Assembly: GCA_932521035.1 (NCBI GenBank)
Contig: OW051495.1
Coordinates: 2,232,001 to 2,296,000 of the forward strand
Source of the DNA: Oscheius dolichura
Taxonomy: Eukaryota; Nematoda; Chromadorea; Rhabditida; Rhabditidae
Direction: 5' to 3'
DNA length: 64,000 nucleotides
The position numbers and the translations under genes were made by a program. Positions 3,248 through 64,000 of this stretch are shown piece by piece. Positions within the stretch are counted from its first letter, which is position 1. The number at the start of each line of letters is the position of its first letter. The notes beneath the pieces are model-generated. The model did not search any database. It was not told where the DNA came from and saw nothing but the letters and a program-made list of their open reading frames with translations.

Positions 3248-3657
3248 TAGGGCAGGGAACGCCGCAATTGCGTAATCGCATTTTTTTGCTCACGTTTTCG
3301 AACTTCACAATTCATGCTTCCACTGATATTTTTTTCTCTTCTTTTGCGAATTTAGAGCCTCCCACTAGCTACATTTATAAACATAGAAAAATGAAAAAAG
3401 TCGGAAAACTCACGAGTGAACACAAATTGCGTGTCCACGAACATACGGGTCCTAGGACCCGTATTCAGATGGAACGCCATTACAATTTACTACTGATTGC
3501 AATGCTTTTTCTTTTATTTTTTTTGTTGCTGAATGTAGCTAGTGGGATGCTCTAAATTTGCAAAGGAGAGAAAAAAATATCAATGGAAGCATGAATTGTG
3601 AAGTTCGAAAACGTGAGCAAAAAAATGCGATTACGCAATTGCGACTTCCCTGCCCTA
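3248..3657. mobile_element. Foldback (long terminal inverted repeat) element of about 410 bp
   Basis: Terminal inverted repeats of about 128 bp (3248-3375 and 3530-3657) begin TAGGGCAGGGAA and share the block GCGATTACGCAATTG read inward from the right end. The TA at each outer end could be a target-site duplication. The centre holds a perfect 22-bp palindrome (3443-3464, core ACGGGTCCTAGGACCCGT), so the whole element can fold into a long stem. The plus-strand open frame across it (3268-3555) is a by-product of the arms. Non-autonomous DNA transposon; superfamily not certain. Confidence 0.75.
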
Positions 3658-32079: not shown

Positions 32080-32337
32080 GTCACCGCCCACGCCAAGCGC
32101 GCGCGCATTCAAACTAACGTTGTGAGTTCGACCCCGGCGGTGACCAAAACTTTTGCTTTTCTCTTCATCTGTCACTACTTTTGCATGTGTGAAACACTAA
32201 CGACGGCTTGATTCGCATTGGTAACTATAGCTCGGAAATTTGTCGGAAAACTTTTCGGAAATTTAAAATTCAAAATGGAGAAACGGAAAAGCTGATAGGC
32301 TGGGGACCGCGTTTTTGACGCGGCGAAGCCCTCTTGT
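32080..32337 (+). repeat. SINE-like element with tRNA-related head, copy 1
   Basis: The head GTCACCG ... CGGTGAC (32080 to about 32144) looks like a degenerate tRNA acceptor pairing and carries a B-box-like GAGTTCGACCC (32124-32134). The body continues AAACTTTTGCTTTTCTC, CACTACTTTTGCAT, AACACTAACGACGGCT and ACTATAGCTCGG, and ends with a hairpin tail ACCGCGTTTTTGACGCGG CGAAGCCCTCTTG. The body and tail recur in reverse at 50725-50918, so this is a dispersed repeat. RNA polymerase III origin is inferred from the head. Confidence 0.6.
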
Positions 32338-43787: not shown

Positions 43788-46117
43788 ACAGCCTTTTTCG
43801 GGGGCGGGCGGCAGATTGACAGACAGACTGGGGCTTCTATGGTCGCATCAGCTGGTCGCTATAAACTGTCCAGAACATTCGAGATCTCTTCTTTTCTAGT
43901 TGCATCGTCTCTTTTAAAAGTCCATCCATTTCTTATCGTGGTTCACCCCGTTTCCGATAAAATATCCTTATACTTCCAGCCCCACACTGAAAAAGTTTCA
44001 CTGACTGCTCATATATCGCTTGGAAGAGCAGCAACCATTCAAACTCTCTCAATACGTGATCATCTCTTTTTGGCGCTTCCTTCTTGAGAAGATGCGTTGT
44101 TATACCTCACTTCCAACTTTTTGCTTCACTGCCACTACTAATTTTCATATTTCCTTCTTCACCACTACCCATAATTTGCTGCCTGTATCCCTCTCTCCTC
44201 CCCCATCTTTCTCTACCTACTTCGTTTCATTTTCTGTTATTCCTGACCTTTTCTGACCTTTCCTGACAATTTCTGTCTGTTTACAGTCTCCCCCTTCTTC
44301 CCCACGTTTTCTTCTTCTGACGTTGTTTTCTTTTGTCGAGAGAGAAAACAAAGCCTCAAAATAATTGTTGTTTTCTCCCCGAAAAACTTGTTGAATTGTT
44401 TCGCTTTCTCTTCAGAAATACTACTGATACAATTACTGATATTGGTACTTGGACTTATCTTATATCATCCAAACTCTCTCTCTAGTTTCCTTTTGAAAGT
44501 GTCTCCCCATACCCGCGAGACCTCGCCCGTCTGACGTCTCCCTGTCCTTTTTCTGTCCGTAAACAGTCGCATTACTCCATTTGCAAGAGTCCGTTTTTCC
44601 CCGTTTCCCCATCGACCGCTCGGTCGTCGTGATCTTCGAAAGTCGGTCGGGGGAAGGGAAGGGAAAGAAGCGAGACAGAGAAGAGAGAACGGGTATTGAA
44701 GACCGGGCACCGCCAAAAATATCATTTCTTTTCGAATGGATTGGCGGGAATCGGGCGGGACAGGGAAAGGACAATGACTGCCATGAGACAGACAGCCTTC
44801 GTACCAACTATGGTCTGGATGAAACTATTACAAATGCCACTAGAAAATGTTAGAAGCCAAGCATAAAAGAAAGCAAAAACATTTAGCGGGGGCGGGGATC
44901 GAACCCGTGACCTCTCCGACTACGCGCCCGCTCACTTCGCGCTGCGCTAGGAAAGCTCGACAAGTCACAAACACACAAACAGACACGCTAGCGCCTTAAA
45001 TAATAGGGATCATTTTTCAACGATAATCGAATTTCTAGCTCTCCAAAAACATTAGATGTTTTGTCTCCCCCGCCTATTCGAAGCCTATCTCTTTGTTTTG
45101 CTTCAACCGAATCCAGCAACTGTCGAATTTAACGAATTGAGAACATCGCGTTGCCCGAATAATATGAGTCAACCCGCCAGGTCCCGGGTCGTCTCCCCCT
45201 TCCCCCTCCCCGTCCTACTTCAACCCACTATCCCTGTTTGTCCTTTTCCCAACCGCCAGTACCTGTTAGAGGAAAGACATTTGGCAAATGATCCGAAGAG
45301 GTTATAAGAGATGGGGCAATTAGTGGCACAATACTTTAGTAGCCGTTTTATCTCTAGAGAATTATAGGAAAAGTCGGTATACGTTATACTGATGGCTTCC
45401 CTTCGAATTGCTATATCATATCAACGTGAAGCGTGTCTATTTTAGTATCTGCCCCGTTTCCGGTTCTCGTTGAACTTTTCGCGTATCGTTCTTGAATAGG
45501 TCATTGACAGCGTCATCATCCACTGCAATCGGGTACATTTGCAGACAATTTGATAGAATGAACTGTTTTATAGAACTACCAAATGAAACACAGCGTAATA
45601 GCTAGTTAGGACAAAGTCCGCTTCAGATATACGCCACGAATCATTAACCATGCCAATGGTTACGGGGCTTCTTTTCTTTCTTCTTTATCCGGTCACATTG
45701 ATCCATTGCACCGGTTGACACTAACCCTTCAAATAGCAAAACGGGAAACTCACCCTTCCTAGTTAGAAAATACTGGGACTACAGTTAGGATCACTCCCAC
45801 CCTCAAGTATCCGCCCCGAAACATTCCCCCTTTCCCTTAAAATTTCGCCCGCCAATCGTCCTTTCCCCGTCATCGTGGCTGTCGCGTGTACCCCCCGTTT
45901 TATTTATCAAAATAAAGAGAAAAACTCGATCTTCTCCATCTAAACAGCCCGGTCAAAAAGACGACAACATTCTCTAATTTGGGGCCGAGTACGGTCTTTG
46001 TTCCCGCTCTTTTAATATGTTTTGTCGCCTATTCAAAGTCCTTCTAGCCTACTCCTTCTCAATATTTTGTGTCACTTGGATAATCAAAAGAAAGGAAAAT
46101 GTTTCAGTGTACCCCTA
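43788..46117. other. FMO upstream region within the left arm
   Basis: About 2.3 kb before the FMO start codon, repeated identically at 61671-64000. It holds pyrimidine-rich stretches, GC-rich islands near 44480-44780, 45170-45250 and 45790-45930, and the tRNA-like segment listed separately. A GTTTCAG acceptor at 46101-46107 lies 10 nt before the ATG and is a likely trans-splice site. AACAGCCCGGTCAAAAAG at 45943 resembles a Tc1-type end but stands alone. I see no other gene. Confidence 0.5.
44884..44958 (-). repeat. tRNA-like sequence with A and B boxes, left-arm copy
   Basis: On the minus strand an A-box-like TAGCGCAGCGCG (44949-44938) is followed 33 bp later by a perfect B box GGTTCGATCC (44905-44896), the internal promoter layout of RNA polymerase III. 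The T arm is well formed (CGGGTTCGATCCCCG). The 5' end does not pair with the CCCCCGC 3' end, so it is not a functional tRNA. It is a tRNA pseudogene or SINE head. The sequence after it (AATGTTTTTGCTTTC) resembles that after the head at 32080-32144. The same sequence is mirrored at 62830-62904. Confidence 0.6.
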
Positions 46118-49100
46118 ATGGTTCGTCAGAGACGAGTGGCCGTGATCGGCGCGGGAGCCAGCGGTCTTCCCTGTATCAGGTATACTATATTAATATATAG
46201 AAATATAAAATATAATTGTAGACACGCCAGATTGTACGGGCTGGACGTGGTGTGCTTCGAGGCGTCGGAATACGTCGGCGGGCTGTGGCGGTACCGGTCG
46301 AGCGAGGAAGAAAGTCAGAATTTAGCCAGTCGCCCCTTGAAATGGCCCGTTTCAGCCTCGTCCGTGATGAAGAGTACGGTAATCAACACCTCCAAGGAAA
46401 TGACCGCCTACTCGGACTTTCCCCCGGCCCCCGACACCCCCAACTTCATGCACAACACCCAGATGTACCGGTCAGTTTTCAATTTTCATTATTTTCAAAG
46501 GAATTCGGGGAGAGATAAGGGAAAGGGTGAAACGGGGATTTGGCTCTTTATCTCGAATATTTTGCACCCGGGGAAGCCGATTATGACGTCGGGGAGGGTG
46601 AAGGGGCGCTGCTACTGATTAGCCCTAATTCTTGAGTTTTGTTTTTTATATTACCCGGGGAGAGTGGTCATTGGGTGGCAAAATTAGAAAGAGACCGACG
46701 AGCATCCAGTAAAACATTCTTGAGGTGTGGCTCGAATATTACCGTATCCTTGGAAAGGCAGGGAAGAAGCATTCAGCGGCATAGTTTCAGTAATGGAGAC
46801 GGCGAGCGTCCAATTGTCATCCCACTAAAGCGACTCCCTTTTGAGGCAATCCAAAATCACAAAATGTTCAAATTTATCAGAGATCGACCAGGACCCTCAT
46901 ACCGTGTCGTAATCACAAATCTTTCCCATTTGAGCAGCACAAGAACACGCTTTGCAATAAAAATCATGAAGATATGAGCTCTTCAATTTGTCCCAAAGCA
47001 ATAGCAACTTCTCTGACTAAAGCATATTTCAATCGCCGCATCTGATTGTCTACGGCCACTGAAACAAGCGGAGGACTCGCCCCTTGCTGCGTAACAGCGT
47101 CTCAGACTTCTGATTTCAAAAACGGCCGGTGTTGAAGTCATACATCAGGAAAACATAGATCACCGATTCTACTGGCGCGGTGAACTCTTGTGAGCGTAGT
47201 ATGAAACATCAGAAGAACGAAAAAGGATCAATGTACCAAGGACTACTCTTGCTCTTCCTCGAGGCATTTTCAATACACACTGAAACAAAGAAACGAATTC
47301 CAATCGCTCCCTAGTGCCCTACTGTCTGATTCATTCGACCAGAGCAATCTTCTCTCCCTGACAAATTTGGCCGATAAGAGATCAGGAGCCGGTGTTGTGG
47401 CTGTCGTTTTCCTTTCGGTCTACGTCAATCCGAGCGGAGAACTGATTGGTCGATAAAATGACAAACAGGACAGGCTAGAGAGACGGGCCCTTATCTCTGA
47501 TCTGTGGTCGGGCCGCAATTCCCGGAATTTCTTTCGTTTCGGGACACTTTCTAGAGGGACTCTCCAATTGTATTACAGTAATAAAGGGATTACAGATATC
47601 TGAGCAGCTATGCCGAGCACTACAACCTGAAGCAATACATCCGGTTCAACCACAAAGTGAAAAACGTCTTCCGAAGCGAGGACTACCCGGTGACGGGACA
47701 GTGGAAGGTGACCTATTTGACACCGTGAGGGATACTGTAGACAGATGTTAAAGGACCGTTTCAGGCAGGAGGAGGAGAAGACGGAGACCTTCGACGGGGT
47801 GCTGATGTGCTCCGGACACCACTCGGTCCCCTACCTGCCGGAGCCCTGGGAGGGACAGGAAAAGTTCCGGGGGAAGGTCGCCCACTCGCTCTACTACAAG
47901 GATCACAGGGGTGGGTACTGTTTGGATTTGAAGGGGAGGGGATGTTGACTGTTTCGGGGAGGTTATTTGTGGAGTGGGGGAAGCTAGAGGGGTTGTTGAT
48001 ATCTGCCCGGGAAGAGTCAATCTGTCCCTTTCATTATCCCCCACTCAAAGAGGTTAGAGCTTCTTCTTACTAATCAACGGCAATTTCCACTGTTTTGATT
48101 TGTCACCCTCAAAAATGAGGAAACGCCGATAAGGGGAAGGCTCGTGTTCTTTTGACTCCTCCCTCTGTTCTTCTCTCTTTTATAGAATATTTGCCAAGAA
48201 GCCTTGTAATACGAGAAACGGGTGATTATAAATTGTAAGAGCTAACGCGACTGTCTTCTTAGAAGTTCGGCTTTTGAAGCAATATGTACTGATAGAAATA
48301 TCCTAGAAATGCATGCGGAAATATAAAATTGGAGTGAAGCGAGAATATCAGCAAATAGAATGAGTAACTATCGACGGACGATAAGGGTCAACCCTCCCGG
48401 TATCAGGAGACCTCGTCCGGCTCTTTTGATTCCTCTTTTTTTATAGCCAAAATTTTTCTAATCATTGGATAATCTCGGCGGGATTAGGCAGTTCCCCCTT
48501 CTAAAAACGACATTTTCCAGGTTACGAGGACAAGACAGTGATCGTGGTGGGAGTCGGCAACTCAGGAGGGGATGTCGCCGTCGAGCTGAGCCGCGTCGCC
48601 AAACAGGTTCGTTTCTCTTTTCTTTTTCTTCTTTCAAGGTAGATTTATACTCTAGAGAAGGCTAACCATTTGCTGGTTGCGAGTATTGCCAAATAATCTG
48701 TAGATTTGTAGGTCTACCTGGTAACCCGACGCGGCACGTGGGTCTTCAACCGGGTCTTCGACTACGGCAAGCCCCTGGACATGGCCCTGAACCGGAAATT
48801 CCTCTACAACATTCGAAAAGTCGTGCCGGAACCGATGTTGAACGTGGCCATCGAGACGATGCTCAACAAGAGATTCGACCACGCCCAGTACGGACTCAAG
48901 CCCAGCCACCACGTGCTGAAGTGGGTTTTGATCCTTGACCTTGCTACGCTTCTAATAACAAACACTGGAAAGGGGGTCCTCTTATGGGAGCAGTAAAACA
49001 TCTTTATTCTGAAATAAGTAGTACTCCCTTTTGGAATTTCTTAGGCTGTGGTTGACAGTTGAAATAGAAGCAAAAGAACCGAAACTAGTTCAATGATAAT

Positions 49101-50562
49101 CTTGTTACTAGCATTCAACAGAACTGTCCTATTCATTCTGTTTTGTTGTCTCCTCATTTACACGAAAATCTCTTCCCTATCGCTCCGTGTTCGTTTCTGA
49201 AATGTAACTCAATCCGTTTCAGTGCCCACCAGACGATAAACGACGACCTGCCGATGCGGATCGCCTGCGGCAGTATCAAGATGAAGCCGAGCATCCAGCG
49301 TTCCAACGAGACCGACATCCAATTCGTCGACGGCACCATCGTCAACAACGTCGACGCCGTGAGTCATTCAACCGACTCGGGTTACTGTAGCTATAGGTCA
49401 TCCTGGCCACCGGCTACAATTTCGAGTTCAAGCTCTGCGAAATGGGCAAACTGTTCCCGGTGGTGGAGAACGAGGTCGACCTCTACTTGAATATGTTTCC
49501 CCTCGAGACCGCCGACCACAATACTCTCGCCATTATCGGATTGATACAGGTGGGACCGTTTAAAAGATTCTTATATATGTTTTGGGGGAGGTGTTATATC
49601 TGGGTGGAGGGGAGGCGATGATCGTATTGCCATGTCTGTTATTCGAAAAGAAACAAGACTTTTGGAATTTCTAGGGTTTCGGGCGACTTGTTATAGTCTC
49701 CCTCGTGTGGCCGACACTGCTTCGATAAAGTATCCAATTGCAGCCCTTCGGTTCGATCGCCCCCGTCTCCGAGATGCAGGCCCGTGTCTTCTTCGAGAAC
49801 TTGGCCGGCTCGAGGCGGATTCCCTCCCGGAAACACATGCAGAATGACGTGGCGATGAAGAGGAAAGATCTCAGGACACGATACGTCCACAGTAGAAGGC
49901 ACACCATCCAGGTACCCTTTTTATTCTTATTTCTATGTTCCGGACCTCGCTTACTAGATGGAGAGGGACTCCTTCTCAATAAACTTTGAAAATGAACACA
50001 ATTTCAGATAGAATTCATCGACTACATGGACGAGTTGGCCGAGATCATCGGAGCCAAGCCGGACTTCTTCCAGATGTTCTGGAAGGATCCCTATCTCGCT
50101 ATGAAGGTGTGTTACACAGGGAGGATACAGAAAAGGGGCAATACAATGTTTTGTTGATCCCTTATCAAAGTATTCCTAGTTGTCATTCTAATAGTCTGCC
50201 AACAATCATCCATCAATAATCTCCCCTCCATTTCAGGTGGAATTCGGTCCCCGCGTCTCGTCCATCTACCGGTTACAAGGCCCAAATATCTGGGAAGGAG
50301 CCCGAAAGTCCATATTATCCATTGATCAGAGGACGTATAAAGTGAGTTGCCTTGCTTTTTGATAGAATTTTAGTGTTTCGTGGGTTTATGGGAGATAGAA
50401 CATCTCTTTCTCTATAAGATAACGAAATTAGGGATTCCTTCAGTTTTGCATCCGTCTAGGTTTCCTTTTCAGCCAAACTCCTACTCTTTCCACGGCAAAG
50501 ACTCATTCCCGATGTGGATGGCTGCTATCTTTGTATTTTTACTGATTGTTTCATTAGTGTAA
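46118..50562 (+). CDS. fmo: Flavin-containing monooxygenase, left copy, 543 aa
   Basis: Twelve exons in consistent phase: 46118-46179, 46222-46470, 47596-47724, 47765-47910, 48521-48606, 48712-48920, 49223-49358, 49397-49549, 49744-49911, 50008-50106, 50237-50341, 50473-50562. FMOs use FAD, NADPH and O2 to oxidise nucleophilic N and S atoms at the endoplasmic reticulum. Visible motifs are the FAD-binding VIGAGASGL (9-17), the FMO signature FRGKVAHSLYY (181-191), the NADPH-binding GVGNSG (206-211) and LATGYN (342-347). The last exon encodes a hydrophobic C-terminal anchor (FPMWMAAIFVFLLIVSLV). The length is close to the usual 530-560 aa. The start is the ATG just before VRQRRVAVIGAG, 10 nt after a TTTCAG acceptor. 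Exons 1-11 lie inside the left arm and are identical to the right copy; exon 12 lies in the spacer and differs. Intron 46471-47595 (1.1 kb) shows no other gene. Confidence 0.95.
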
Positions 50563-50724
50563 ATATTTGTTTGTCCCAGATCCTCGACGTTTCCCCCCAA
50601 AGTGTGCATTATATTATTTGTTGCTATTATTTTGAATCCCGGTGATATTTGTATGTATGTTTGACGAATACGGTGAGATATGAACAATGATACTCATTTT
50701 CTGTTCTTTTCACTTTGTTCCATA
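50563..50724. other. FMO left copy 3' flank
   Basis: Short AT-rich 3' region between the FMO stop and the SINE-like element; probably the 3' UTR. Confidence 0.4.
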
Positions 50725-50918
50725 CAAGAGGGCTTCGCCGCGTCACAAACGCGGCCCCCAAAAATGTTCAACAAATGGCCGAGCTATAGTTACAAATGCG
50801 AATCGAGCCGTCGTTAGTGTTTCCCATATGCAAAAGTAGTGACAGATGAAGAAAACACAAAAATAGAGAAAAGCAAAAGTTTCACGGGTTTAGCGTATGG
50901 TTGGTACCAGGCGGTGAG
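50725..50918 (-). repeat. SINE-like element, copy 2
   Basis: Read on the minus strand, it shares with 32080-32337 the blocks CTTTTGCTTTTCTC, CATCTGTCACTACTTTTGCA, AACACTAACGACGGCT, AACTATAGCTCGG and the tail hairpin CCGCGTTTGTGACGCGG with CGAAGCCCTCTTG. The head (TCACCGCCTGG...) is shorter and lacks a recognisable B box. It sits immediately downstream of the left FMO gene, inside the palindrome spacer, and has no counterpart next to the right FMO gene. Confidence 0.6.
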
Positions 50919-50961
50919 AAAGATATCTGCGTAAAATGTGGAGTCTTCCATAGAACTTTTT

Positions 50962-51663
50962 TTATTCATCATAAAACTTTATTTCACATTTTCGTGTATT
51001 TTCTGCACAAATGGTGTCAAATGTTTCTTTGATTTCTTCGAGAGTCTCTGTCTCTTGGAAAACGGACATGTCCAGGGGTTTGTACCCGCAGATAGACTGC
51101 AAAAGAACCCGTAACTTCGAGATAACTGCTGCAAATACAAAGAGAACGACATTTTTCTGCTTCCTTTGACTCAGAATTTCTTGCTGATTCCGGTTAACCA
51201 ATTGAAAAAATGTCAAAAAAATTGGAGGGAAATGAAGGAAAAGTTTCAACTTTGTTTAGCTATTTTGTCCGCCGTGCGGCACCGAGGAACAGGGCGCCCA
51301 TTGTTTACAAGAAAAATCGCTAAAGTTGTCTAACTGTGGTCTTTCTATACGACTCACATTGTGTCTGCTGTCTGACTTGGTAGTAGAAGACGCGTATACG
51401 CCGAAAAGCGCTCAAATTTTTATCTACACTTACTGTAAAATGTTGCCATTGTATAAACAGTTTCTTTCCACAGTATATGCCGAGTTTTCTCTTATTGATT
51501 TCGCAAGATTTGTCTGCTCCGCTACAAGTTTGACGGAAGCGAGCATATACCATTGGGCATAACTGTAATCAATTATCCATTTCGTTTATGAAAATTGACA
51601 TACCTTTCTAATTATCTGAATTCTCAGCTCTATGGGTAATTCTGTAAATCTTTGGAAGTCCAT
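50962..51663 (-). CDS. Small F-box family protein, 143 aa
   Basis: Three exons on the minus strand: 51663-51604 (20 codons), 51562-51358 and 51128-50962 (TAA at 50964-50962). Phases agree across both introns (41 bp, GTATGT...TTACAG; 229 bp, GTGAGT...TTTGCAG). The N-terminus MDFQRFTELPIELRIQIIRK followed by LCPMVYARFRQTCSGADKSCE has the F-box pattern (LP-x-E-L, I-x-x-x-L, R-x-T-C/CS-x-A-D) seen in the large nematode F-box families whose members link substrates to SCF ubiquitin ligases. The second part (KKLFIQWQHFTVSVDKNLSAF) and the C-terminus (SICGYKPLDMSVFQETETL) look coding but carry no domain I can name. At 143 aa it is short for the family, so it may be a reduced or partial member. If the second donor is not used, exon 2 runs on to a stop at 51320. 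Confidence 0.55.
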
Positions 51664-52649
51664 TTAGCGCTAGAAAAAACTACGGAAATTGAATGGAAAG
51701 GAAGGAAAAATACTGCTACCAAAAACAACATGAATTTTAAAGCGAAGTCTTTTTTGCTTTTCATTACACTGCGTCGCAGTTAGTAATTATAGATTTTTGA
51801 AGAAGAAGAGGAGGTCCACTAGAATTCAATATACTTTCTGGACAAGAGTCCCCCAGCCCTCTGAGGGGCCAAGATAGAAAAAAGAGACTGACCTGTTACC
51901 TACCTGCCTGCTGCAGAAAAGGGCGGCCACAAGGAACAAGTGACCGGCGGAGACGAGAAAGGAGCAAACTGAACGTATCATTTTGTATAGAAACAGACTT
52001 TCGCGGCCTCTAGTTCCTCTTCGCTCTTTCAAACTACTGGTCAAAAAATTAGCCGAAAACGAAAATACAACGCACTATATCGCAGCAAGATTATCTTGGC
52101 AGCTTTGTGCTAGGCAAAGCGGTGAATCACGGGCAATTTCTGATCACAGTTGATGACAACGGATGTTGAGCCTGCTGCGACGGAAAAACGGATTGAAAAC
52201 TCGTACCGAGCCGAACCAAACCGCACGACGTGAAGAACCGAAAGTGGCACAAGGGAATGTTCTAATCCGTTTCGACAAGAGTTTGGTTAGGCTCAATCGG
52301 GCTTATCCATTTTCCCCCGTTGCTCGGCTGCGCCGCTTTACTGTTGTGTATGTATGAGCTGCTCTATTTGGCCTTTTGTTCGCTCTAGTTGCCTTTCTAA
52401 TCCAGCTGTCTGGCGCTTCTATGCGCTGGGAATTCGAGGTGAACCTTTCTAGGTTCTCTCTTCCCTTCCTCGTCCCGGATGCTTCCTCTTCTGTTCTCCC
52501 TTCTCATCCACGTCGGAGTCTTCTCGTCTTCGCGTCACACTGCCCATAGATCTTCCTTCCATTTCTAAAAGTATCCAATCCTCCAGGAGCATTACAAGAA
52601 CTCACCTTGTTTCAATCCAAGGGCTAGCCGAGGAGTACTGCCAACAGAC
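51664..52649. other. Spacer DNA, nothing firm
   Basis: A minus-strand ATG near 51980 opens a hydrophobic, signal-peptide-like stretch (MIRSVCSFLVSAGHLFLVAA) ending at a possible GTAGGT donor near 51902. I found no second exon for it. The rest is AT-rich or pyrimidine-rich with no recognisable feature. Confidence 0.3.
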
Positions 52650-53204
52650 AGAGGCCAGTCTGAAAAAGAGAGAGCAAAGCAGAGAAAAAAGAAAAGCGAA
52701 AAATCTCCAAAATTTCAAGTCAAAATCATTTTTAGCCTGTCAAAAGGCGCTCGAGACTGTCGAGAACTTCCAGCTTTCCCTATGTGATGTCTGGGCCCAA
52801 CCGCAGTATACCAAACACCGCTGTGGCTACGGAGGAGCCGAGAACATCGGGAAAGCCGGGCCGGGATCACCTTCTTCGACTAGAAGTCAAAGTTTAGGAT
52901 GTGGGAGCGGCGGATTCGCTGCCCACTGATCCCATTGGCCATCTCTTTTTGCCTCATTTTACGCGAAAATAACCTAACTGAAGGTGCGCTGGTTTTACTC
53001 CGAGCGAACAAAAGTTGTCATGGTTTTTGAGTAACAATATGAAAAAAAGTAACAAAAGCAACCTGGTGACGAAGAAATGAAGAGACTGCCGTCTGCCGCC
53101 ACCGAAGAAAGAAGAATGACTGGCGACATTGACAAGAAACGGTCAAACCTGGTCAGCTTGTTTTGACACGCTTTTGACAAGACCACCTCGTCGAGACGGC
53201 GGGA
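52650..53204 (+). repeat. Direct repeat R, copy 1
   Basis: Matches 56206-56726 in the same orientation. The first 310 bp differ at only about three positions by my reading; beyond about 52960 the copies have drifted, with indels. The near-identical part is open in one plus-strand frame that ends at TGA 52927-52929 (C-terminal tail ...SQSLGCGSGGFAAH). It may be the 3' part of a gene or a gene fragment. I do not recognise the peptide. Confidence 0.75.
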
Positions 53205-53575
53205 AAATGGCAAAGCAGTCTTTCAGAAATTGATGCTGACAGCTTTCGGCAGACCAAGAATTGGCTCATTTCTAAAAGAGGCTCTCAAATAGCACCTCTG
53301 AAACGTTAGTCTAACAGAGTAAGGGGAGAACTGAACGCGAAGGTCTCCACAACTGTGTCCCCCTCTGTGCATCATCCTTATAAAAGGTGAATGCAATATT
53401 TATTCGGTTGGTCAGGCCAATAAATATCGAGAAGTATGTACAATCTACTCGTCGTGTTGTGGAAGAAAAACTAGCTAAATGGGGTGTGTGTAAATAAGGG
53501 GTGTCACCGCCGCCAAATTATTTGGTTGGTCAGGCCAATTTTGGCAAAATGAATGAAAGGGGAGGGGAGGGGGGT
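53205..53575. other. 3' flank of ShKT gene with repeated GGTTGGTCAGGCCAAT motif
   Basis: Contains the 16-bp motif GGTTGGTCAGGCCAAT twice (53406-53421 and 53524-53539), 118 bp apart, downstream of the minus-strand ShKT gene. The motif includes an imperfect palindrome (TTGGtcaggCCAA). The same pair recurs in the flank of the partial ShKT copy (55329-55344 and 55436-55451). Confidence 0.6.
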
Positions 53576-54396
53576 CTAGCAGAGTCCACAGGTCTTCCCA
53601 CAGGTTGTGCTCTTCTGTGTTTGGCTGTAGAATGTCGAGGTACAGAAGCCATTTCTGGCCCAGTTGGCACAGGACGTGTTGACATCTCCACAGGTTCCAG
53701 TTCCGGCCGTGGTTACCGAACCGGAGCTAGAGGTAGTGGAGGAACCGGTACACAATCCACAGGTACGCTGACAATTGGCAGTAATGAAGGATGTTAGAGC
53801 CGTATTCGAGCAAATGGTAGCCTGGGTGGCACAGTCGGGGGCGGCGTCAATACAACCTCCCAAGAGACAGAAACCACAGACATTGGGGCAGTCCTGGGCG
53901 ATGATGTTTCTCCATTGGGTACTCTGGCACATGTCCGGGGTTACGGTAGCACAATTGATGCGGGGAGCTGAAGGAGAAGGTTAAAGCATGGTAACTGCCA
54001 AACTCACTTGCAGAATTGGTGCAACTGTATTCGGGTGTCACACAGCAGAAGCCACAGTACTTGGGGCAGATATCGATGGCGGCGTTCTTGACATCCTGAC
54101 TGGGGGCGGCCGGGGTCTTCGTCTGGTAACATGTCGGAACTCTGTTTGGTGTCTCTGGCTGGCCGGGCGCCGGAAGGGCCGTATTGGCAGTTCCGCCGTT
54201 GAACAGCTGGTCGCAGATCGTCTGGGCGACGGTATCCTGGCAGGCGGTAGCGGCCGGCGTGAAGACGAGGGCGCCAGTACTGTCCTGAAGTATATCTCTT
54301 CTCGAGAAATGGATACTCTCCTACCACTGTGGTACAATTCGGATCAACTGCTGCTACCAGAGCGAGAGAAGCCAGGAAGAAGACGAGGCTGATCAT
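53576..54396 (-). CDS. Secreted ShKT-domain protein, 246 aa
   Basis: Three exons: 54396-54325, 54284-54008 and 53967-53576 (TAG). Introns are 40 bp each, with consistent phase. Residues 1-16 form a signal peptide (MISLVFFLASLALVAA). Four six-cysteine ShKT-like modules follow: a divergent one (about 39-108, ending CPKYCGFCC), 122-150 (ending CPNVCGFC), 155-189 (CATQATIC ... CQRTCGLC), and a canonical one at 209-246 ending the protein (WARNGFC ... CGKTCGLC). A Ser/Thr-rich linker (190-208) precedes the last module and may be O-glycosylated. ShKT modules are three-disulfide domains common in nematode secreted proteins; some block potassium channels or occur with proteases. No enzyme domain is present here, and function is not assigned. 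It lies in the palindrome spacer with a partial paralogue 1.1 kb away. Confidence 0.85.
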
Positions 54397-55317
54397 GCTG
54401 CGGGACCCGATGAGTATGCCCTCCTTCAAAAGAAGCCAGCTTATATATCCGCCGAGATTTATTCAGAAGGGCTTTTGTTCCTTTTTCCTCAAAGGGGAAC
54501 AAAATGTGTCACCATGTGTTTACAGCAAAATAAACAGAACGCCAAATTGACAAATAAAAACGTACAAGCGGTTTATTGTGACTCTTACGCGGCGCTGTGG
54601 TGATCTTTGCCGTCCATTAAATCCGGACCGCTGCTCATAAACTTGGCGGGCCTTCTAGTTTTCTATCGAACCCGGTATCTGGTTCCAAAACATCCTACGT
54701 TCTATCCAACGTTTTACCGGAAAGAAGCCGGCCTTTCTAAGCATCAGCCTAGGCTAGCCTCCCGTTGCTCCTAACCCCAGAGACAAGTGGCCGACAACGA
54801 TACTTGAGAGGATTCTCAGCCTTTCCTTTGGAGAAAAGCCCCGTTTCTCCCAGGTTACTCACAAATTTCCTCTTTCCGTGAATCTGTAGAAATGACACCC
54901 ACTCAACTTTTTTTTTCTGAAATGTTGGGATGAAAAGATAAACGGCTGCTCCAGAAAGTATAGTCGGCAAAGCATCCAGTCAAAGTTTGCGGGGTTACAG
55001 ATGTTTCGCCGGGGTGGCTGAGATATGATTGGGTTCTTTATAATCGTCTTGGCGTGCTATCCAACTAGATCTTTGAATTTTTGAAATCGACCAAGAAATG
55101 ACCGAGAGATGGACACAAACGCACGACACTCCCGTCTACACCCAAAAACGGCCGCCATTTCCAGGGTAGCAGCCAATTGTTCTTTTTCTTACGACACTTG
55201 CCTTCCTGTTGTGACACAGTGAGTGTAAAAGTGCTGCCTCTCCATAAAACTTTTTATAGCACCCCACAGCTCTATTTCTCCTTTCTAATGACTTTATAAC
55301 GAGAATAATAAATAAAT
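54397..55317. other. Upstream of ShKT gene, nothing recognised
   Basis: About 0.9 kb of mixed-composition DNA. It should include the ShKT gene promoter near 54400-54500 (CTTATATATCC at about 54440 is a possible TATA element 40 bp from the ATG). No repeat or exon is convincing. Confidence 0.4.
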
Positions 55318-55822
55318 AATATTTATTCGGTTGGTCAGGCCAATAAATCCGGGGGTATATACAATCTGCTCGTCGTTGGATTGTGAGGTAAGGGCTAAAA
55401 CTAATTAAATATATGACACCGCCGCTAAATTATTTGGTTGGTCAGGCCAATTTGGCGAAATGAATGAGGATAAGAAGAGGGGGTCTAGCAGAGTCCACAG
55501 GTCTTTCCACAGGTTGTGCTCTTCTGCGCCTGGCTGTAGAATGTCGAGGTACAGAACCCATTTCTGGCCCAGCTGGCACAGGACGCATTCACATCTCCAC
55601 AGGTCCCGCTGGCTGTGGTTACGGAGCCGGAGCTGGAGGTTGTGGAAGAGCTAGTGCATAGCCCGCAGGTGCGCTGGCAGTTTGCAGCGGTGAAAGCGGA
55701 GAGGACCGTGTTGCCGCAGATGGTAGCCTGGGTGGCACAGTCGGGGGCGGCGCCGATACATCCACCAAGGAGACAGAATCCGCACGTATTGGGACAATCC
55801 TGGGCAATGGTGGCATCCACCC
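55318..55822 (-). pseudogene. Partial ShKT-domain paralogue (last exon only, with 3' flank)
   Basis: The minus strand from an acceptor at 55823 to the TAG at 55485 encodes 111 residues that align with the last exon of the gene at 53576-54396: part of module 2, module 3 (CQRTCGLC), the Ser/Thr linker and a canonical final module (WARNGFC ... CGKTCGLC). The 3' flank (55318-55484) is also shared, including two GGTTGGTCAGGCCAAT motifs. I found no signal-peptide exon in the 380 bp before direct repeat R copy 2. It is probably a partial duplicate, unless the missing exons are too diverged to see. Confidence 0.6.
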
Positions 55823-56205
55823 CTAAAAAGCGAGCAATAATATCCAACGGTTTGCCGCCGGGATGAGAACAATCTGATCTGTGTTGCAGTGTGCCCAAAT
55901 GTGGCCAAAATAAACAGGCGCGTGTCTGAGGATACAACCCAGCAGCCGTAACACTTTCACTGCAAAACTTTCATCTCGGCTGCTGTTTTGAAAATGGCTG
56001 GCTTATGAATATATCCAATTTTGTAGCCCACTTGGTAGACGAAAGAGGCGCTGTCCTTATCCTATGCCGATGTGAAGAAGGAATTCAATACTAACCTCCA
56101 GATGTTCAAAGAGTGGCTATTCCTTTCTTCTTCTCTCGCTTCCCGGGGTCTTCTCCATCTACTTCTACAATATCCATCCAAGAAGTTTTGTTGCCAGCAG
56201 GAAGA
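55823..56205. other. Between partial ShKT copy and repeat R copy 2
   Basis: Plus-strand sequence near 56042-56120 reads as a plausible exon (TKEALSLSYADVKKEFNTN..., after a TTGGTAG acceptor-like site) in frame with the open part of repeat R copy 2. I do not recognise the peptide and cannot confirm an exon. Confidence 0.3.
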
Positions 56206-56726
56206 GGCCAGTCTGAAAAAGAGACAGCAAAGCAGAGAAAAAAGAAAAGCGAAAAATTTCCAAAATTTCAAGTCAAAATCATTTTTAGCCTGTCAAAAGG
56301 CGCTCGAGACTGTCGAGAACTTCCAGCTTTCCCTATGTGATGTCTGGGCCCAACCGCAGTATACCAAACACCGCTGTGGCTACGGAGGAGCCGAGAACAT
56401 CGGGAAAGCCGGGCCGGGATCACCTTCTTCGACTAGAAGTCAAAGTTTAGGATGTGGGAGCGGCGGATTCGCTGCCCACTGATCCCATTGGCCGTCTCTT
56501 TTTGCCTCATTTTACGCGAAAATAACCTAACTGAAGGTGCGCTGGTTTTACTGCGGGCGATCAAAAGTTTTTGAGTAGCAACTTTAGAAAGTAGCAAAAA
56601 CAACCTGGGAAGAAATGAAGAGACTGCCGCCTGTTGTCACCGAAGAAAGAAGAATGGACTGACGAGCTCGACAGAAAACGGTCAAATCTGGTCAGCCGGT
56701 TTCGACACGCTTTTGACAAGACAAAA
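56206..56726 (+). repeat. Direct repeat R, copy 2
   Basis: Second copy of 52650-53204, same orientation, 3.5 kb away. The near-identical first 310 bp end in the same open frame (TGA at 56480-56482). Here the frame extends upstream to 56072 for 136 codons in all. The flanks and the last 200 bp are less similar, so the near-identity is confined to a short core. Confidence 0.75.
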
Positions 56727-57230
56727 ACCATCGGAGCAATGGTAAAAATGTTCAGAAAAACCAATTGCTCGATACATCAATTAGGTGAAAGAAATAGTCT
56801 AGCAAAGAATTGGTACAAAAGTGAATAGGCAAAAGCAGTTTTGCAGGCGAATACAGACTCTCACCACCCCCCAATTAAAACCCCTTGGTGAGAGCCTGTA
56901 ATGGCCGTATTTGCAGGGACTGCTTACATTTCTCTAGTGTGCCAGTTTTTGAGTGAACGCGGCAAACAATTGACTACCAAATCCTTTCTTTTAGCACAAC
57001 TGTAACTCCTGACATAGGAAACAAAATACTTTATTTATTTCATTATACAATATGTATTATTTTGTATCGCATCCATATTTACAGTATTCTACAGCTCATT
57101 TCACAATTCTACAACGTTTTCTCGTTTCTCATGGGATCAGTTTCCATCCTGCCCGTTTCCCTGCTAATTTGTTGAGATCATAGGCTCCCGTTTCTTTTTC
57201 AGCCGATTTCGACGATTCGTCTTCGCTTCT
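56727..57230. other. Spacer DNA with a hairpin, 3' of right FMO
   Basis: An imperfect inverted repeat lies at about 56844-56920 (TGCAGGCGAATACAG / CTGTAATGGCCGTATTTGCA and ACTCTCACCA / TGGTGAGAGC). The right part (57000-57230) is the probable 3' UTR of the right FMO gene. I see no gene. Confidence 0.45.
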
Positions 57231-60200
57231 TCAATAGAAAGTGTTTCTAACCAAGGAGACCAGGAGTAAAAATGCAAAGAGCGCAGTCATCCACATCGGG
57301 AACGAGTCCTTGCCGTGGAAGGAATAGGTGGTGGGCTGAAAATGAGGTATAGAAAAGAATTCGACTGAACAACTGAAATGATGCGGCCAACTTTTATCAA
57401 ACCTCCGTGAAATTGCAAAATTCTATCAAAAAGCAAGGCAACTCACTTTATACGTCCTCTGATCAATGGATAATATGGACTTTCGGGCTCCTTCCCAGAT
57501 ATTTGGGCCTTGTAACCGGTAGATGGACGAGACGCGGGGACCGAATTCCACCTGAAATGGAGGGGAGATTATTGATGGATGATTGTTGGCAGACTATTAG
57601 AATGACAACTAGGAATACTTTGATAAGGGATCAACAAAACATTGTATTGCCCCTTTTCTGTATCCTCCCTGTGTAACACACCTTCATAGCGAGATAGGGA
57701 TCCTTCCAGAACATCTGGAAGAAGTCCGGCTTGGCTCCGATGATCTCGGCCAACTCGTCCATGTAGTCGATGAATTCTATCTGAAATTGTGTTCATTTTC
57801 AAAGTTTATTGAGAAGGAGTCCCTCTCCATCTAGTAAGCGAGGTCCGGAACATAGAAATAAGAATAAAAAGGGTACCTGGATGGTGTGCCTTCTACTGTG
57901 GACGTATCGTGTCCTGAGATCTTTCCTCTTCATCGCCACGTCATTCTGCATGTGTTTCCGGGAGGGAATCCGCCTCGAGCCGGCCAAGTTCTCGAAGAAG
58001 ACACGGGCCTGCATCTCGGAGACGGGGGCGATCGAACCGAAGGGCTGCAATTGGATACTTTATCGAAGCAGTGTCGGCCACACGAGGGAGACTATAACAA
58101 GTCGCCCGAAACCCTAGAAATTCCAAAAGTCTTGTTTCTTTTCGAATAACAGACATGGCAATACGATCATCGCCTCCCCTCCACCCAGATATAACACCTC
58201 CCCCAAAACATATATAAGAATCTTTTAAACGGTCCCACCTGTATCAATCCGATAATGGCGAGAGTATTGTGGTCGGCGGTCTCGAGGGGAAACATATTCA
58301 AGTAGAGGTCGACCTCGTTCTCCACCACCGGGAACAGTTTGCCCATTTCGCAGAGCTTGAACTCGAAATTGTAGCCGGTGGCCAGGATGACCTATAGCTA
58401 CAGTAACCCGAGTCGGTTGAATGACTCACGGCGTCGACGTTGTTGACGATGGTGCCGTCGACGAATTGGATGTCGGTCTCGTTGGAACGCTGGATGCTCG
58501 GCTTCATCTTGATACTGCCGCAGGCGATCCGCATCGGCAGGTCGTCGTTTATCGTCTGGTGGGCACTGAAACGGATTGAGTTACATTTCAGAAACGAACA
58601 CGGAGCGATAGGGAAGAGATTTTCGTGTAAATGAGGAGACAACAAAACAGAATGAATAGGACAGTTCTGTTGAATGCTAGTAACAAGATTATCATTGAAC
58701 TAGTTTCGGTTCTTTTGCTTCTATTTCAACTGTCAACCACAGCCTAAGAAATTCCAAAAGGGAGTACTACTTATTTCAGAATAAAGATGTTTTACTGCTC
58801 CCATAAGAGGACCCCCTTTCCAGTGTTTGTTATTAGAAGCGTAGCAAGGTCAAGGATCAAAACCCACTTCAGCACGTGGTGGCTGGGCTTGAGTCCGTAC
58901 TGGGCGTGGTCGAATCTCTTGTTGAGCATCGTCTCGATGGCCACGTTCAACATCGGTTCCGGCACGACTTTTCGAATGTTGTAGAGGAATTTCCGGTTCA
59001 GGGCCATGTCCAGGGGCTTGCCGTAGTCGAAGACCCGGTTGAAGACCCACGTGCCGCGTCGGGTTACCAGGTAGACCTACAAATCTACAGATTATTTGGC
59101 AATACTCGCAACCAGCAAATGGTTAGCCTTCTCTAGAGTATAAATCTACCTTGAAAGAAGAAAAAGAAAAGAGAAACGAACCTGTTTGGCGACGCGGCTC
59201 AGCTCGACGGCGACATCCCCTCCTGAGTTGCCGACTCCCACCACGATCACTGTCTTGTCCTCGTAACCTGGAAAATGTCGTTTTTAGAAGGGGGAACTGC
59301 CTAATCCCGCCGAGATTATCCAATGATTAGAAAAATTTTGGCTATAAAAAAAGAGGAATCAAAAGAGCCGGACGAGGTCTCCTGATACCGGGAGGGTTGA
59401 CCCTTATCGTCCGTCGATAGTTACTCATTCTATTTGCTGATATTCTCGCTTCACTCCAATTTTATATTTCCGCATGCATTTCTAGGATATTTCTATCAGT
59501 ACATATTGCTTCAAAAGCCGAACTTCTAAGAAGACAGTCGCGTTAGCTCTTACAATTTATAATCACCCGTTTCTCGTATTACAAGGCTTCTTGGCAAATA
59601 TTCTATAAAAGAGAGAAGAACAGAGGGAGGAGTCAAAAGAACACGAGCCTTCCCCTTATCGGCGTTTCCTCATTTTTGAGGGTGACAAATCAAAACAGTG
59701 GAAATTGCCGTTGATTAGTAAGAAGAAGCTCTAACCTCTTTGAGTGGGGGATAATGAAAGGGACAGATTGACTCTTCCCGGGCAGATATCAACAACCCCT
59801 CTAGCTTCCCCCACTCCACAAATAACCTCCCCGAAACAGTCAACATCCCCTCCCCTTCAAATCCAAACAGTACCCACCCCTGTGATCCTTGTAGTAGAGC
59901 GAGTGGGCGACCTTCCCCCGGAACTTTTCCTGTCCCTCCCAGGGCTCCGGCAGGTAGGGGACCGAGTGGTGTCCGGAGCACATCAGCACCCCGTCGAAGG
60001 TCTCCGTCTTCTCCTCCTCCTGCCTGAAACGGTCCTTTAACATCTGTCTACAGTATCCCTCACGGTGTCAAATAGGTCACCTTCCACTGTCCCGTCACCG
60101 GGTAGTCCTCGCTTCGGAAGACGTTTTTCACTTTGTGGTTGAACCGGATGTATTGCTTCAGGTTGTAGTGCTCGGCATAGCTGCTCAGATATCTGTAATC

Positions 60201-61670
60201 CCTTTATTACTGTAATACAATTGGAGAGTCCCTCTAGAAAGTGTCCCGAAACGAAAGAAATTCCGGGAATTGCGGCCCGACCACAGATCAGAGATAAGGG
60301 CCCGTCTCTCTAGCCTGTCCTGTTTGTCATTTTATCGACCAATCAGTTCTCCGCTCGGATTGACGTAGACCGAAAGGAAAACGACAGCCACAACACCGGC
60401 TCCTGATCTCTTATCGGCCAAATTTGTCAGGGAGAGAAGATTGCTCTGGTCGAATGAATCAGACAGTAGGGCACTAGGGAGCGATTGGAATTCGTTTCTT
60501 TGTTTCAGTGTGTATTGAAAATGCCTCGAGGAAGAGCAAGAGTAGTCCTTGGTACATTGATCCTTTTTCGTTCTTCTGATGTTTCATACTACGCTCACAA
60601 GAGTTCACCGCGCCAGTAGAATCGGTGATCTATGTTTTCCTGATGTATGACTTCAACACCGGCCGTTTTTGAAATCAGAAGTCTGAGACGCTGTTACGCA
60701 GCAAGGGGCGAGTCCTCCGCTTGTTTCAGTGGCCGTAGACAATCAGATGCGGCGATTGAAATATGCTTTAGTCAGAGAAGTTGCTATTGCTTTGGGACAA
60801 ATTGAAGAGCTCATATCTTCATGATTTTTATTGCAAAGCGTGTTCTTGTGCTGCTCAAATGGGAAAGATTTGTGATTACGACACGGTATGAGGGTCCTGG
60901 TCGATCTCTGATAAATTTGAACATTTTGTGATTTTGGATTGCCTCAAAAGGGAGTCGCTTTAGTGGGATGACAATTGGACGCTCGCCGTCTCCATTACTG
61001 AAACTATGCCGCTGAATGCTTCTTCCCTGCCTTTCCAAGGATACGGTAATATTCGAGCCACACCTCAAGAATGTTTTACTGGATGCTCGTCGGTCTCTTT
61101 CTAATTTTGCCACCCAATGACCACTCTCCCCGGGTAATATAAAAAACAAAACTCAAGAATTAGGGCTAATCAGTAGCAGCGCCCCTTCACCCTCCCCGAC
61201 GTCATAATCGGCTTCCCCGGGTGCAAAATATTCGAGATAAAGAGCCAAATCCCCGTTTCACCCTTTCCCTTATCTCTCCCCGAATTCCTTTGAAAATAAT
61301 GAAAATTGAAAACTGACCGGTACATCTGGGTGTTGTGCATGAAGTTGGGGGTGTCGGGGGCCGGGGGAAAGTCCGAGTAGGCGGTCATTTCCTTGGAGGT
61401 GTTGATTACCGTACTCTTCATCACGGACGAGGCTGAAACGGGCCATTTCAAGGGGCGACTGGCTAAATTCTGACTTTCTTCCTCGCTCGACCGGTACCGC
61501 CACAGCCCGCCGACGTATTCCGACGCCTCGAAGCACACCACGTCCAGCCCGTACAATCTGGCGTGTCTACAATTATATTTTATATTTCTATATATTAATA
61601 TAGTATACCTGATACAGGGAAGACCGCTGGCTCCCGCGCCGATCACGGCCACTCGTCTCTGACGAACCAT
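57231..61670 (-). CDS. fmo: Flavin-containing monooxygenase, right copy, 548 aa
   Basis: Twelve exons: 61670-61609, 61566-61318, 60192-60064, 60023-59878, 59267-59182, 59076-58868, 58565-58430, 58391-58239, 58044-57877, 57780-57682, 57551-57447, 57335-57231 (TGA). Exons 1-11 are the exact mirror image of the left copy and encode the same residues, including the FAD motif (9-17), the FMO signature (181-191), the NADPH motif (206-211) and LATGYN (342-347). The last exon differs: it starts PTTYSFHGKDSFPMWM, has the hydrophobic anchor TALFAFLLLVSLV, and ends with five extra residues (RNTFY). Over 87 aligned bases I count 18 differences from the left exon 12. The last intron is 111 bp, against 131 bp in the left copy. 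The two genes point toward each other and would make convergent transcripts with complementary mRNAs if the strands met. Confidence 0.95.
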
Positions 61671-64000
61671 TAGGGGTACACTGAAACATTTTCCTTTCTT
61701 TTGATTATCCAAGTGACACAAAATATTGAGAAGGAGTAGGCTAGAAGGACTTTGAATAGGCGACAAAACATATTAAAAGAGCGGGAACAAAGACCGTACT
61801 CGGCCCCAAATTAGAGAATGTTGTCGTCTTTTTGACCGGGCTGTTTAGATGGAGAAGATCGAGTTTTTCTCTTTATTTTGATAAATAAAACGGGGGGTAC
61901 ACGCGACAGCCACGATGACGGGGAAAGGACGATTGGCGGGCGAAATTTTAAGGGAAAGGGGGAATGTTTCGGGGCGGATACTTGAGGGTGGGAGTGATCC
62001 TAACTGTAGTCCCAGTATTTTCTAACTAGGAAGGGTGAGTTTCCCGTTTTGCTATTTGAAGGGTTAGTGTCAACCGGTGCAATGGATCAATGTGACCGGA
62101 TAAAGAAGAAAGAAAAGAAGCCCCGTAACCATTGGCATGGTTAATGATTCGTGGCGTATATCTGAAGCGGACTTTGTCCTAACTAGCTATTACGCTGTGT
62201 TTCATTTGGTAGTTCTATAAAACAGTTCATTCTATCAAATTGTCTGCAAATGTACCCGATTGCAGTGGATGATGACGCTGTCAATGACCTATTCAAGAAC
62301 GATACGCGAAAAGTTCAACGAGAACCGGAAACGGGGCAGATACTAAAATAGACACGCTTCACGTTGATATGATATAGCAATTCGAAGGGAAGCCATCAGT
62401 ATAACGTATACCGACTTTTCCTATAATTCTCTAGAGATAAAACGGCTACTAAAGTATTGTGCCACTAATTGCCCCATCTCTTATAACCTCTTCGGATCAT
62501 TTGCCAAATGTCTTTCCTCTAACAGGTACTGGCGGTTGGGAAAAGGACAAACAGGGATAGTGGGTTGAAGTAGGACGGGGAGGGGGAAGGGGGAGACGAC
62601 CCGGGACCTGGCGGGTTGACTCATATTATTCGGGCAACGCGATGTTCTCAATTCGTTAAATTCGACAGTTGCTGGATTCGGTTGAAGCAAAACAAAGAGA
62701 TAGGCTTCGAATAGGCGGGGGAGACAAAACATCTAATGTTTTTGGAGAGCTAGAAATTCGATTATCGTTGAAAAATGATCCCTATTATTTAAGGCGCTAG
62801 CGTGTCTGTTTGTGTGTTTGTGACTTGTCGAGCTTTCCTAGCGCAGCGCGAAGTGAGCGGGCGCGTAGTCGGAGAGGTCACGGGTTCGATCCCCGCCCCC
62901 GCTAAATGTTTTTGCTTTCTTTTATGCTTGGCTTCTAACATTTTCTAGTGGCATTTGTAATAGTTTCATCCAGACCATAGTTGGTACGAAGGCTGTCTGT
63001 CTCATGGCAGTCATTGTCCTTTCCCTGTCCCGCCCGATTCCCGCCAATCCATTCGAAAAGAAATGATATTTTTGGCGGTGCCCGGTCTTCAATACCCGTT
63101 CTCTCTTCTCTGTCTCGCTTCTTTCCCTTCCCTTCCCCCGACCGACTTTCGAAGATCACGACGACCGAGCGGTCGATGGGGAAACGGGGAAAAACGGACT
63201 CTTGCAAATGGAGTAATGCGACTGTTTACGGACAGAAAAAGGACAGGGAGACGTCAGACGGGCGAGGTCTCGCGGGTATGGGGAGACACTTTCAAAAGGA
63301 AACTAGAGAGAGAGTTTGGATGATATAAGATAAGTCCAAGTACCAATATCAGTAATTGTATCAGTAGTATTTCTGAAGAGAAAGCGAAACAATTCAACAA
63401 GTTTTTCGGGGAGAAAACAACAATTATTTTGAGGCTTTGTTTTCTCTCTCGACAAAAGAAAACAACGTCAGAAGAAGAAAACGTGGGGAAGAAGGGGGAG
63501 ACTGTAAACAGACAGAAATTGTCAGGAAAGGTCAGAAAAGGTCAGGAATAACAGAAAATGAAACGAAGTAGGTAGAGAAAGATGGGGGAGGAGAGAGGGA
63601 TACAGGCAGCAAATTATGGGTAGTGGTGAAGAAGGAAATATGAAAATTAGTAGTGGCAGTGAAGCAAAAAGTTGGAAGTGAGGTATAACAACGCATCTTC
63701 TCAAGAAGGAAGCGCCAAAAAGAGATGATCACGTATTGAGAGAGTTTGAATGGTTGCTGCTCTTCCAAGCGATATATGAGCAGTCAGTGAAACTTTTTCA
63801 GTGTGGGGCTGGAAGTATAAGGATATTTTATCGGAAACGGGGTGAACCACGATAAGAAATGGATGGACTTTTAAAAGAGACGATGCAACTAGAAAAGAAG
63901 AGATCTCGAATGTTCTGGACAGTTTATAGCGACCAGCTGATGCGACCATAGAAGCCCCAGTCTGTCTGTCAATCTGCCGCCCGCCCCCGAAAAAGGCTGT
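61671..64000. other. FMO upstream region within the right arm
   Basis: Mirror of 43788-46117. Same trans-splice-type acceptor (61687-61681 on the minus strand), same GC-rich islands and same tRNA-like sequence. No other gene seen. Confidence 0.5.
62830..62904 (+). repeat. tRNA-like sequence with A and B boxes, right-arm copy
   Basis: Exact mirror of 44884-44958. A box TAGCGCAGCGCG at 62839-62850 and B box GGTTCGATCC at 62883-62892. As in the left copy, the acceptor stem does not close, so it is not a functional tRNA. Confidence 0.6.

What the first reader, a model, noticed from the sequence alone, without database searches (positions are those of the whole stretch)
43788..64000. Giant palindrome with two identical facing arms, each carrying a flavin monooxygenase gene
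Two inverted arms of at least 6,584 bp flank a 7.05-kb spacer. All mirrored features fit one constant (positions sum to 107,788), so there are no indels. Introns and 2.3 kb of upstream DNA are as identical as exons, so protein constraint cannot explain it. Large palindromes with near-identical arms are known from mammalian and other sex chromosomes, where arm-to-arm gene conversion keeps copies alike. An autosomal-type nematode FMO pair in this form would be a striking case. The main alternative is an assembly artefact.
Basis: partly seen in the sequence, partly recalled or inferred. Interest (0 to 1): 0.85.

Follow-up and report, generated by a model that had tools for sequence, protein, structure and literature searches.

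The report
Mirror-image FMO gene pair, mostly overwritten
Two detoxification-enzyme (FMO) genes face each other tail to tail in what is probably a nematode genome; their first 11 exons and upstream DNA are letter-for-letter identical, but their last exons are very different, so one copy seems to have been recently overwritten by the other, as already described for other worm gene pairs, unless the assembly is wrong.

Summary
The palindrome is real in the given sequence. 43788-50371 equals the reverse complement of 57417-64000 over 6,584 bp with no difference, and the right arm is cut by the window end. The identity stops 30 bp into the last intron of the FMO gene. Exon 12 of each copy lies in the 'spacer' and is strongly diverged: dS about 1.1, dN about 0.10, both reading frames intact. 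Exons 1-11 have 0 changes at 338 synonymous sites. So these are two old, functional, tail-to-tail paralogues whose upstream parts (at least 6.6 kb, including introns and 2.3 kb 5' of the gene) were made identical much later. Arm-to-arm gene conversion, or a related long copying event, explains this best. A simple fold-back read or duplicated contig does not, because the junction sits in exact homologous register and keeps both genes in frame. A paralogue-switch misassembly, or arms forced identical by consensus, remains possible and cannot be tested without reads. C. elegans has direct precedents (hsp-16; F44E5.4/F44E5.5; PMC1803023), so this is a new, unusually long member of a known kind. 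The sex-chromosome analogy is unnecessary; chromosome identity is untested.

The parts
43788..50371 (+). Left palindrome arm: 2.3 kb upstream DNA, FMO-A exons 1-11, first 30 bp of intron 11
   Evidence: exact reverse complement of 57417-64000
57417..64000 (-). Right palindrome arm, cut by window end: first 30 bp of intron 11, FMO-B exons 11-1, 2.3 kb upstream DNA
46118..50562 (+). FMO-A gene, 12 exons, 543 aa: 46118-46179, 46222-46470, 47596-47724, 47765-47910, 48521-48606, 48712-48920, 49223-49358, 49397-49549, 49744-49911, 50008-50106, 50237-50341, 50473-50562
   Evidence: all GT..AG introns, one open frame; Pfam PF00743 E 7e-161; best PDB match ancestral FMO5 6sek, E 4e-143
57231..61670 (-). 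FMO-B gene, mirror of FMO-A for exons 1-11, own exon 12, C-terminus ...VSLVRNTFY (five residues longer than FMO-A)
50473..50562 (+). FMO-A exon 12 (C-terminal hydrophobic tail), outside the identical arm
57231..57335 (-). FMO-B exon 12, diverged homologue of 50473-50562: dS 1.13, dN 0.10, five extra C-terminal residues
50372..50472 (+). Rest of intron 11 of FMO-A (101 bp); its counterpart 57336-57416 (81 bp) is no longer clearly alignable
   Evidence: alignment score -7.5, within the range of 300 shuffles (mean -15.8, max -5)
53576..54396 (-). Spacer gene: secreted ShK-domain protein, start of frame near a signal-peptide-like MISLVFFLASLALVAAV
   Evidence: PF01549 E 5.6e-26, three stretches; the 5' gene model is by eye
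55485..55970 (-). Second ShK gene copy in the same orientation, apparently 5'-truncated, about 78-79% identical DNA to 53380-53906
52639..53183 (.). Direct repeat A, copy 1; contains a 350-bp core 52650-52999
56192..56722 (.). Direct repeat A, copy 2; core 56203-56552 differs from copy 1 at 3 of 350 positions while the repeat as a whole is 91.6% identical

Best explanation
An FMO gene was duplicated in inverted, tail-to-tail orientation long ago. Both copies stayed functional. Much later, one copy's sequence from intron 11 outward (11 of 12 exons, all their introns, and at least 2.3 kb of 5' DNA) was copied onto the other by arm-to-arm gene conversion, in one long event or in repeated events. 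The transfer stopped 30 bp into intron 11, so exon 12 and the 3' DNA keep the old divergence. The product is a pair of FMO genes with identical promoters and nearly identical enzymes that differ only in the last about 30 residues, the C-terminal hydrophobic tail. Shown: identity, boundary, exon-12 divergence with purifying selection, intact frames. Inferred: conversion as the process, its direction, timing and number of events. The likely effect, extra dosage of one detoxification enzyme, is also inferred.
For: 6,584 bp are identical with 0 differences. Exon 12 has 11.5 synonymous changes on 19.7 sites and 6.5 nonsynonymous on 67.3 (dS 1.13, dN 0.10; Fisher test for the syn/nonsyn contrast p 7e-6), against 0 of 338 synonymous sites in exons 1-11 (p 1.6e-17). 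The boundary is abrupt: 30/30 identical columns up to 50370, then 11/30 and 8/30, rising again to 25-26/30 in exon 12. Both copies keep a full frame and splice sites across the boundary. The encoded protein is a complete FMO. The spacer holds a second candidate conversion patch, a 350-bp core with 3 differences inside a 91.6% direct repeat. Precedent: C. elegans hsp-16 and F44E5.4/F44E5.5 inverted pairs are kept up to 100% identical, and C. briggsae CBG13231/CBG13232 are 100% identical over the first 297 nt with diverged 3' ends.
Against: No reads, no relatives and no flank beyond 64,000 are available. Reported conversion tracts in Caenorhabditis mostly cluster at 50-200 bp, with a listed maximum of 2,958 bp (PMC3966223), so at least 6.6 kb is long. 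With dS near 1, the paralogous introns and upstream DNA would have been too diverged to support ordinary conversion, unless the arms were kept alike all along or the event was a copying (BIR-like) process. Exon 12 is short (29 codons compared), so dS has a wide error. GC content gives no clear support for GC-biased conversion: introns 42.5%, upstream 44.6%, left flank mean 41.6% with SD 3.3% per kb.
Confidence: 0.66

Rival explanations
1. Assembly or library artefact: the genome holds a tail-to-tail FMO pair that is genuinely diverged, and the assembler (or an in-vitro template switch) jumped from FMO-B onto FMO-A in the shared exon 11/intron 11 region, so that FMO-A's upstream DNA is printed twice. 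A milder form: the arms are really about 98-99% alike and consensus or polishing made them 100%.
For: Identity is exactly 100.000% with no indel in 6.6 kb, which a copied sequence gives for free. Artificial palindromes are frequent after whole-genome amplification (44-48% of Arabidopsis WGA reads, 0.5% in the unamplified control, PMC6218980) and are a known caveat for assembly-based palindrome counts (PMC7953838). The outer end of the arm cannot be seen.
Against: A plain fold-back or missed-adapter read turns at a point set by no gene homology. Here the turn is in exact homologous register between two diverged genes, keeping splice sites and frame. A switch at paralogous sequence with dS near 1 would have had only short homology to use. 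Arms of this length with a 7-kb spacer are within reach of ordinary long reads.
Confidence: 0.2
2. One-off break-induced or template-switch copying: a break in FMO-B was repaired by invading FMO-A near exon 11/intron 11 and copying outward for at least 6.6 kb, possibly far beyond FMO, replacing FMO-B's 5' part in a single recent step, with no history of concerted evolution. I count this as a mechanistic variant inside the best explanation; the confidence given is the probability of this variant.
For: The tract is longer than any listed for Caenorhabditis. It covers noncoding DNA that would not be homologous after dS of about 1. The transition is abrupt.
Against: No outer junction is visible. 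Published worm cases suggest recurrent homogenisation instead.
Confidence: 0.3
3. Recent inverted duplication with no conversion: the whole palindrome arose very recently and exon 12 of one copy was replaced or evolved fast afterwards.
For: It would explain the complete identity of the arms without conversion.
Against: Exon 12 differs mainly at synonymous sites (dN/dS about 0.09), the mark of long purifying selection rather than fast or relaxed change. Intron 11 beyond the boundary is also diverged beyond clear alignment.
Confidence: 0.06

Closest known systems
C. elegans hsp-16 locus (T27E4.8/T27E4.3 and T27E4.9/T27E4.2), convergent inverted repeat
   Same: Inverted arms with genes and intergenic DNA 100% identical; duplication older than the identity (similar structure in C. 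remanei); gene conversion proposed (PMC1803023)
   Different: Spacer there is 414 bp against 7 kb here; here the inner gene ends fall outside the identical arm and keep the old divergence
F44E5.4/F44E5.5 and C. briggsae CBG13231/CBG13232 inverted pairs
   Same: Near-identical arms (2,207 bp, 99.7% at F44E5.4); in CBG13231/CBG13232 the 5' parts are 100% identical while the 3' ends are diverged
   Different: Divergent (head-to-head) genes with a 126-bp spacer, so identity is next to the spacer; here it is the outer part that is identical
Mammalian X and Y palindromes with arm-to-arm gene conversion
   Same: Large inverted arms, over 99% identity (PMC8981503 abstract)
   Different: Sex-linked; usually much larger (general knowledge); chromosome of this locus unknown; no evidence of testis genes
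C. elegans fmo genes (fmo-1 to fmo-5)
   Same: Same enzyme family; the five C. elegans FMOs share an evolutionary root with mammalian FMO5 (PMC11621177 abstract), and the best PDB match here is ancestral FMO5
   Different: Orthology to a particular fmo gene not tested

Membership tests
Flavin-containing monooxygenase (Pfam PF00743) | Full-length match to the family profile with the N-terminal FAD-binding GxGxxG motif | tested here: met
   E 7e-161, profile positions 2-522 of 532; VAVIGAGASGL near the N-terminus; aligns to ancestral FMO5 structure
Palindrome with near-identical inverted arms | Two inverted arms, over 99% identity including noncoding DNA, around a unique spacer | tested here: met
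Inverted gene pair kept alike by gene conversion | Duplication older than the arm identity | tested here: met
   exon 12 dS 1.13 beside 0/338 in exons 1-11; rests on the assembly being right
Inverted gene pair kept alike by gene conversion | Same inverted structure in related species with arms more alike within than between species | not testable with these tools
   No relatives held; genome contigs and viral contigs gave nothing
Sex-chromosome palindrome | Location on a sex chromosome | not testable with these tools
   No whole genome is held for the window
WGA or missed-adapter fold-back artefact | Strand turn at a point unrelated to gene homology, with the two sides of the turn copies of one sequence | tested here: not met
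   the turn is at the homologous position of two diverged genes and keeps both in frame
Paralogue-switch misassembly | Reads do not support the inner junction at 57417, or arm depth is single-copy | not testable with these tools
   No reads available

The most novel reading that the evidence does not exclude
A long-lived palindrome at a detoxification-gene locus in which conversion keeps promoter, introns and 11 exons of two FMO genes identical over at least 6.6 kb while a fixed inner boundary leaves exon 12 free, so that the species maintains two enzymes that differ only in their C-terminal membrane-anchor tail.
Probability: 0.22. Interest if true: 0.65.

Novelty: new member of a known kind. 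Interest (0 to 1): 0.42.

Why it matters
If the assembly is right, the diverged last exon is an internal clock. It shows that the pair is old and that the rest was overwritten recently: zero differences in 6,584 sites bounds arm divergence at 4.5e-4, roughly under 0.1 million generations at assumed nematode mutation rates. The tract is more than twice the longest listed for Caenorhabditis paralogues (2,958 bp, PMC3966223). It is a clean case for asking whether such palindromes are maintained or arise in single long copying events, and a warning that gene trees of these FMOs would date the duplication wrongly.

Tried and rejected
Whole-genome search: none held. Relatives: FMO protein against bacterial/archaeal genomes and a junction 35-mer against viral contigs gave nothing. 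Transposon with giant terminal repeats: rejected, since the arms carry an FMO gene and 5' DNA, the spacer carries ShK genes, and the boundary is inside an intron. Structured RNA in repeat A: nothing above Rfam gathering scores. A mirrored continuation of the palindrome deeper into the spacer: only intron 11/exon 12 is mirrored; the other spacer repeats are in direct, not inverted, orientation. GC-biased conversion: no clear signal. WD40 gene identity from a 31-residue piece: not specific. Pfam scans of 39-43.8 kb and of the + strand of the spacer found no family. Literature searches for a nematode FMO palindrome or inverted FMO pair found none.

Full report
Observation. Bases 43788-50371 are exactly the reverse complement of 57417-64000: 6,584 bp, no mismatch, no gap, coordinate sum 107,788. 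The right arm is cut by the end of the window, so this is a minimum length. In the rest of the window the longest exact inverted match is 60 bp, within a short fold-back element at 3.2-3.7 kb, and 15 bp in a shuffled copy.

Gene content. Each arm holds 2,330 bp of upstream DNA and exons 1-11 of a flavin-containing monooxygenase gene. The spliced protein of copy A is 543 aa, matches Pfam PF00743 from end to end (E 7e-161), and is closest among solved structures to ancestral FMO5 (6sek). The two genes point towards each other (tail to tail). Short introns with TTTCAG acceptors, ShK-domain genes, a Tc3-like transposase and an HCF-1-type kelch gene are consistent with a nematode.

The identity ends 30 bp into intron 11 (50371/57417). 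The last exon of each gene lies in the 'spacer' and the two are clearly homologous but diverged. Over 29 aligned codons there are 11.5 synonymous differences on 19.7 sites and 6.5 nonsynonymous on 67.3, i.e. dS 1.13, dN 0.10; exons 1-11 have none on 338 synonymous sites (Fisher p 1.6e-17). The excess of synonymous change (p 7e-6) shows that both last exons, hence both genes, were under purifying selection for a long time. The rest of intron 11 (101 against 81 bp) can hardly be aligned any more (score within the range of shuffled sequences). Identity along the alignment goes from 30/30 columns to 11/30 and 8/30 at the boundary, then returns to 25-26/30 in exon 12. Copy B keeps a full reading frame across the boundary and ends in five extra residues (RNTFY).

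Interpretation. The pair is much older than the arm identity. The simplest account is an old inverted duplication followed by recent arm-to-arm gene conversion (or a BIR-like copying event) that covered everything from intron 11 outward. The number of events, the direction and the date are inferred. With zero differences the arms have diverged by less than about 4.5e-4 per site (95% bound), under roughly 0.1 million generations if mutation rates are 2-2.7e-9, values assumed from general knowledge of nematodes. A difficulty for ordinary conversion is that DNA with dS of about 1 in coding parts would have had largely unalignable introns and upstream regions. So either the arms were homogenised all along, with a fixed inner boundary, or a single event copied at least 6.6 kb. 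Caenorhabditis tracts are mostly 50-200 bp with a listed maximum of 2,958 bp, and longer ones may be sums of several events (PMC3966223). I cannot separate these two variants here.

Artefact. WGA fold-backs and scaffolding errors make artificial palindromes. A simple fold-back is not a good fit, because it would turn at a point unrelated to gene homology, whereas here the turn is at the homologous position of two diverged genes and preserves splice sites and frame. What remains is a switch between paralogues during assembly, or arms that are truly a little different but were made identical by consensus. Without reads I put this at about 0.2.

Spacer. On the minus strand are two ShK-domain genes in the same orientation, the one at 55.5-56.0 kb apparently lacking its 5' part. 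A further direct repeat (52639-53183 / 56192-56722, 91.6%) has a 350-bp core with 3 differences, possibly a second, small conversion patch. These repeats are direct, so they are not remnants of the palindrome.

Precedent and novelty. Zhao et al. 2007 (PMC1803023) described convergent and divergent inverted gene pairs in Caenorhabditis with arms up to 100% identical within a species although the duplications predate speciation, including a pair identical at the 5' end and diverged at the 3' end. The present locus works like those and is probably one of them, with longer arms, a larger spacer and an internal clock in exon 12. I found no paper on an FMO pair of this form in the library searched. 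Sex linkage is neither needed nor tested.

Noticed in passing
52650-52999 and 56203-56552: 350-bp core with only 3 differences inside a longer direct repeat of 91.6% identity, with abrupt loss of similarity at both sides; a small conversion patch or a conserved exon (plus-strand frame ...ACQKALETVENFQLSLCDVWAQPQYTKHRCGYGGAENIGK...), no Rfam or Pfam match.
   Followed up: partly
53395-53903 and 55318-55809: Two ShK-domain genes in direct orientation; the second seems 5'-truncated (possible pseudogene).
   Followed up: partly
44880-44970 (mirror 62818-62908): tRNA-like stretch (GGGTTCGATCCCCGCC on the - strand) that ARAGORN does not call as a tRNA; possible tRNA-derived short interspersed element or tRNA remnant, identical in both arms.
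   Followed up: no
3248-3657: 410-bp self-complementary element (82.8% to its own reverse complement), probably a fold-back or MITE-type element.
   Followed up: no
7751-8287: Tc3-like transposase fragment on the minus strand.
   Followed up: no
32151-32243 and 50771-50862: 93-bp dispersed inverted repeat, 90% identical; one copy lies just downstream of FMO-A.
   Followed up: no
23400-26700: HCF-1-type kelch gene on the plus strand, with a WD40-repeat gene on the minus strand at about 21.7-22.7 kb; from memory these resemble hcf-1 and a WDR82/swd-2 gene of C. elegans chromosome IV, which could help place the window; not verified.
   Followed up: partly
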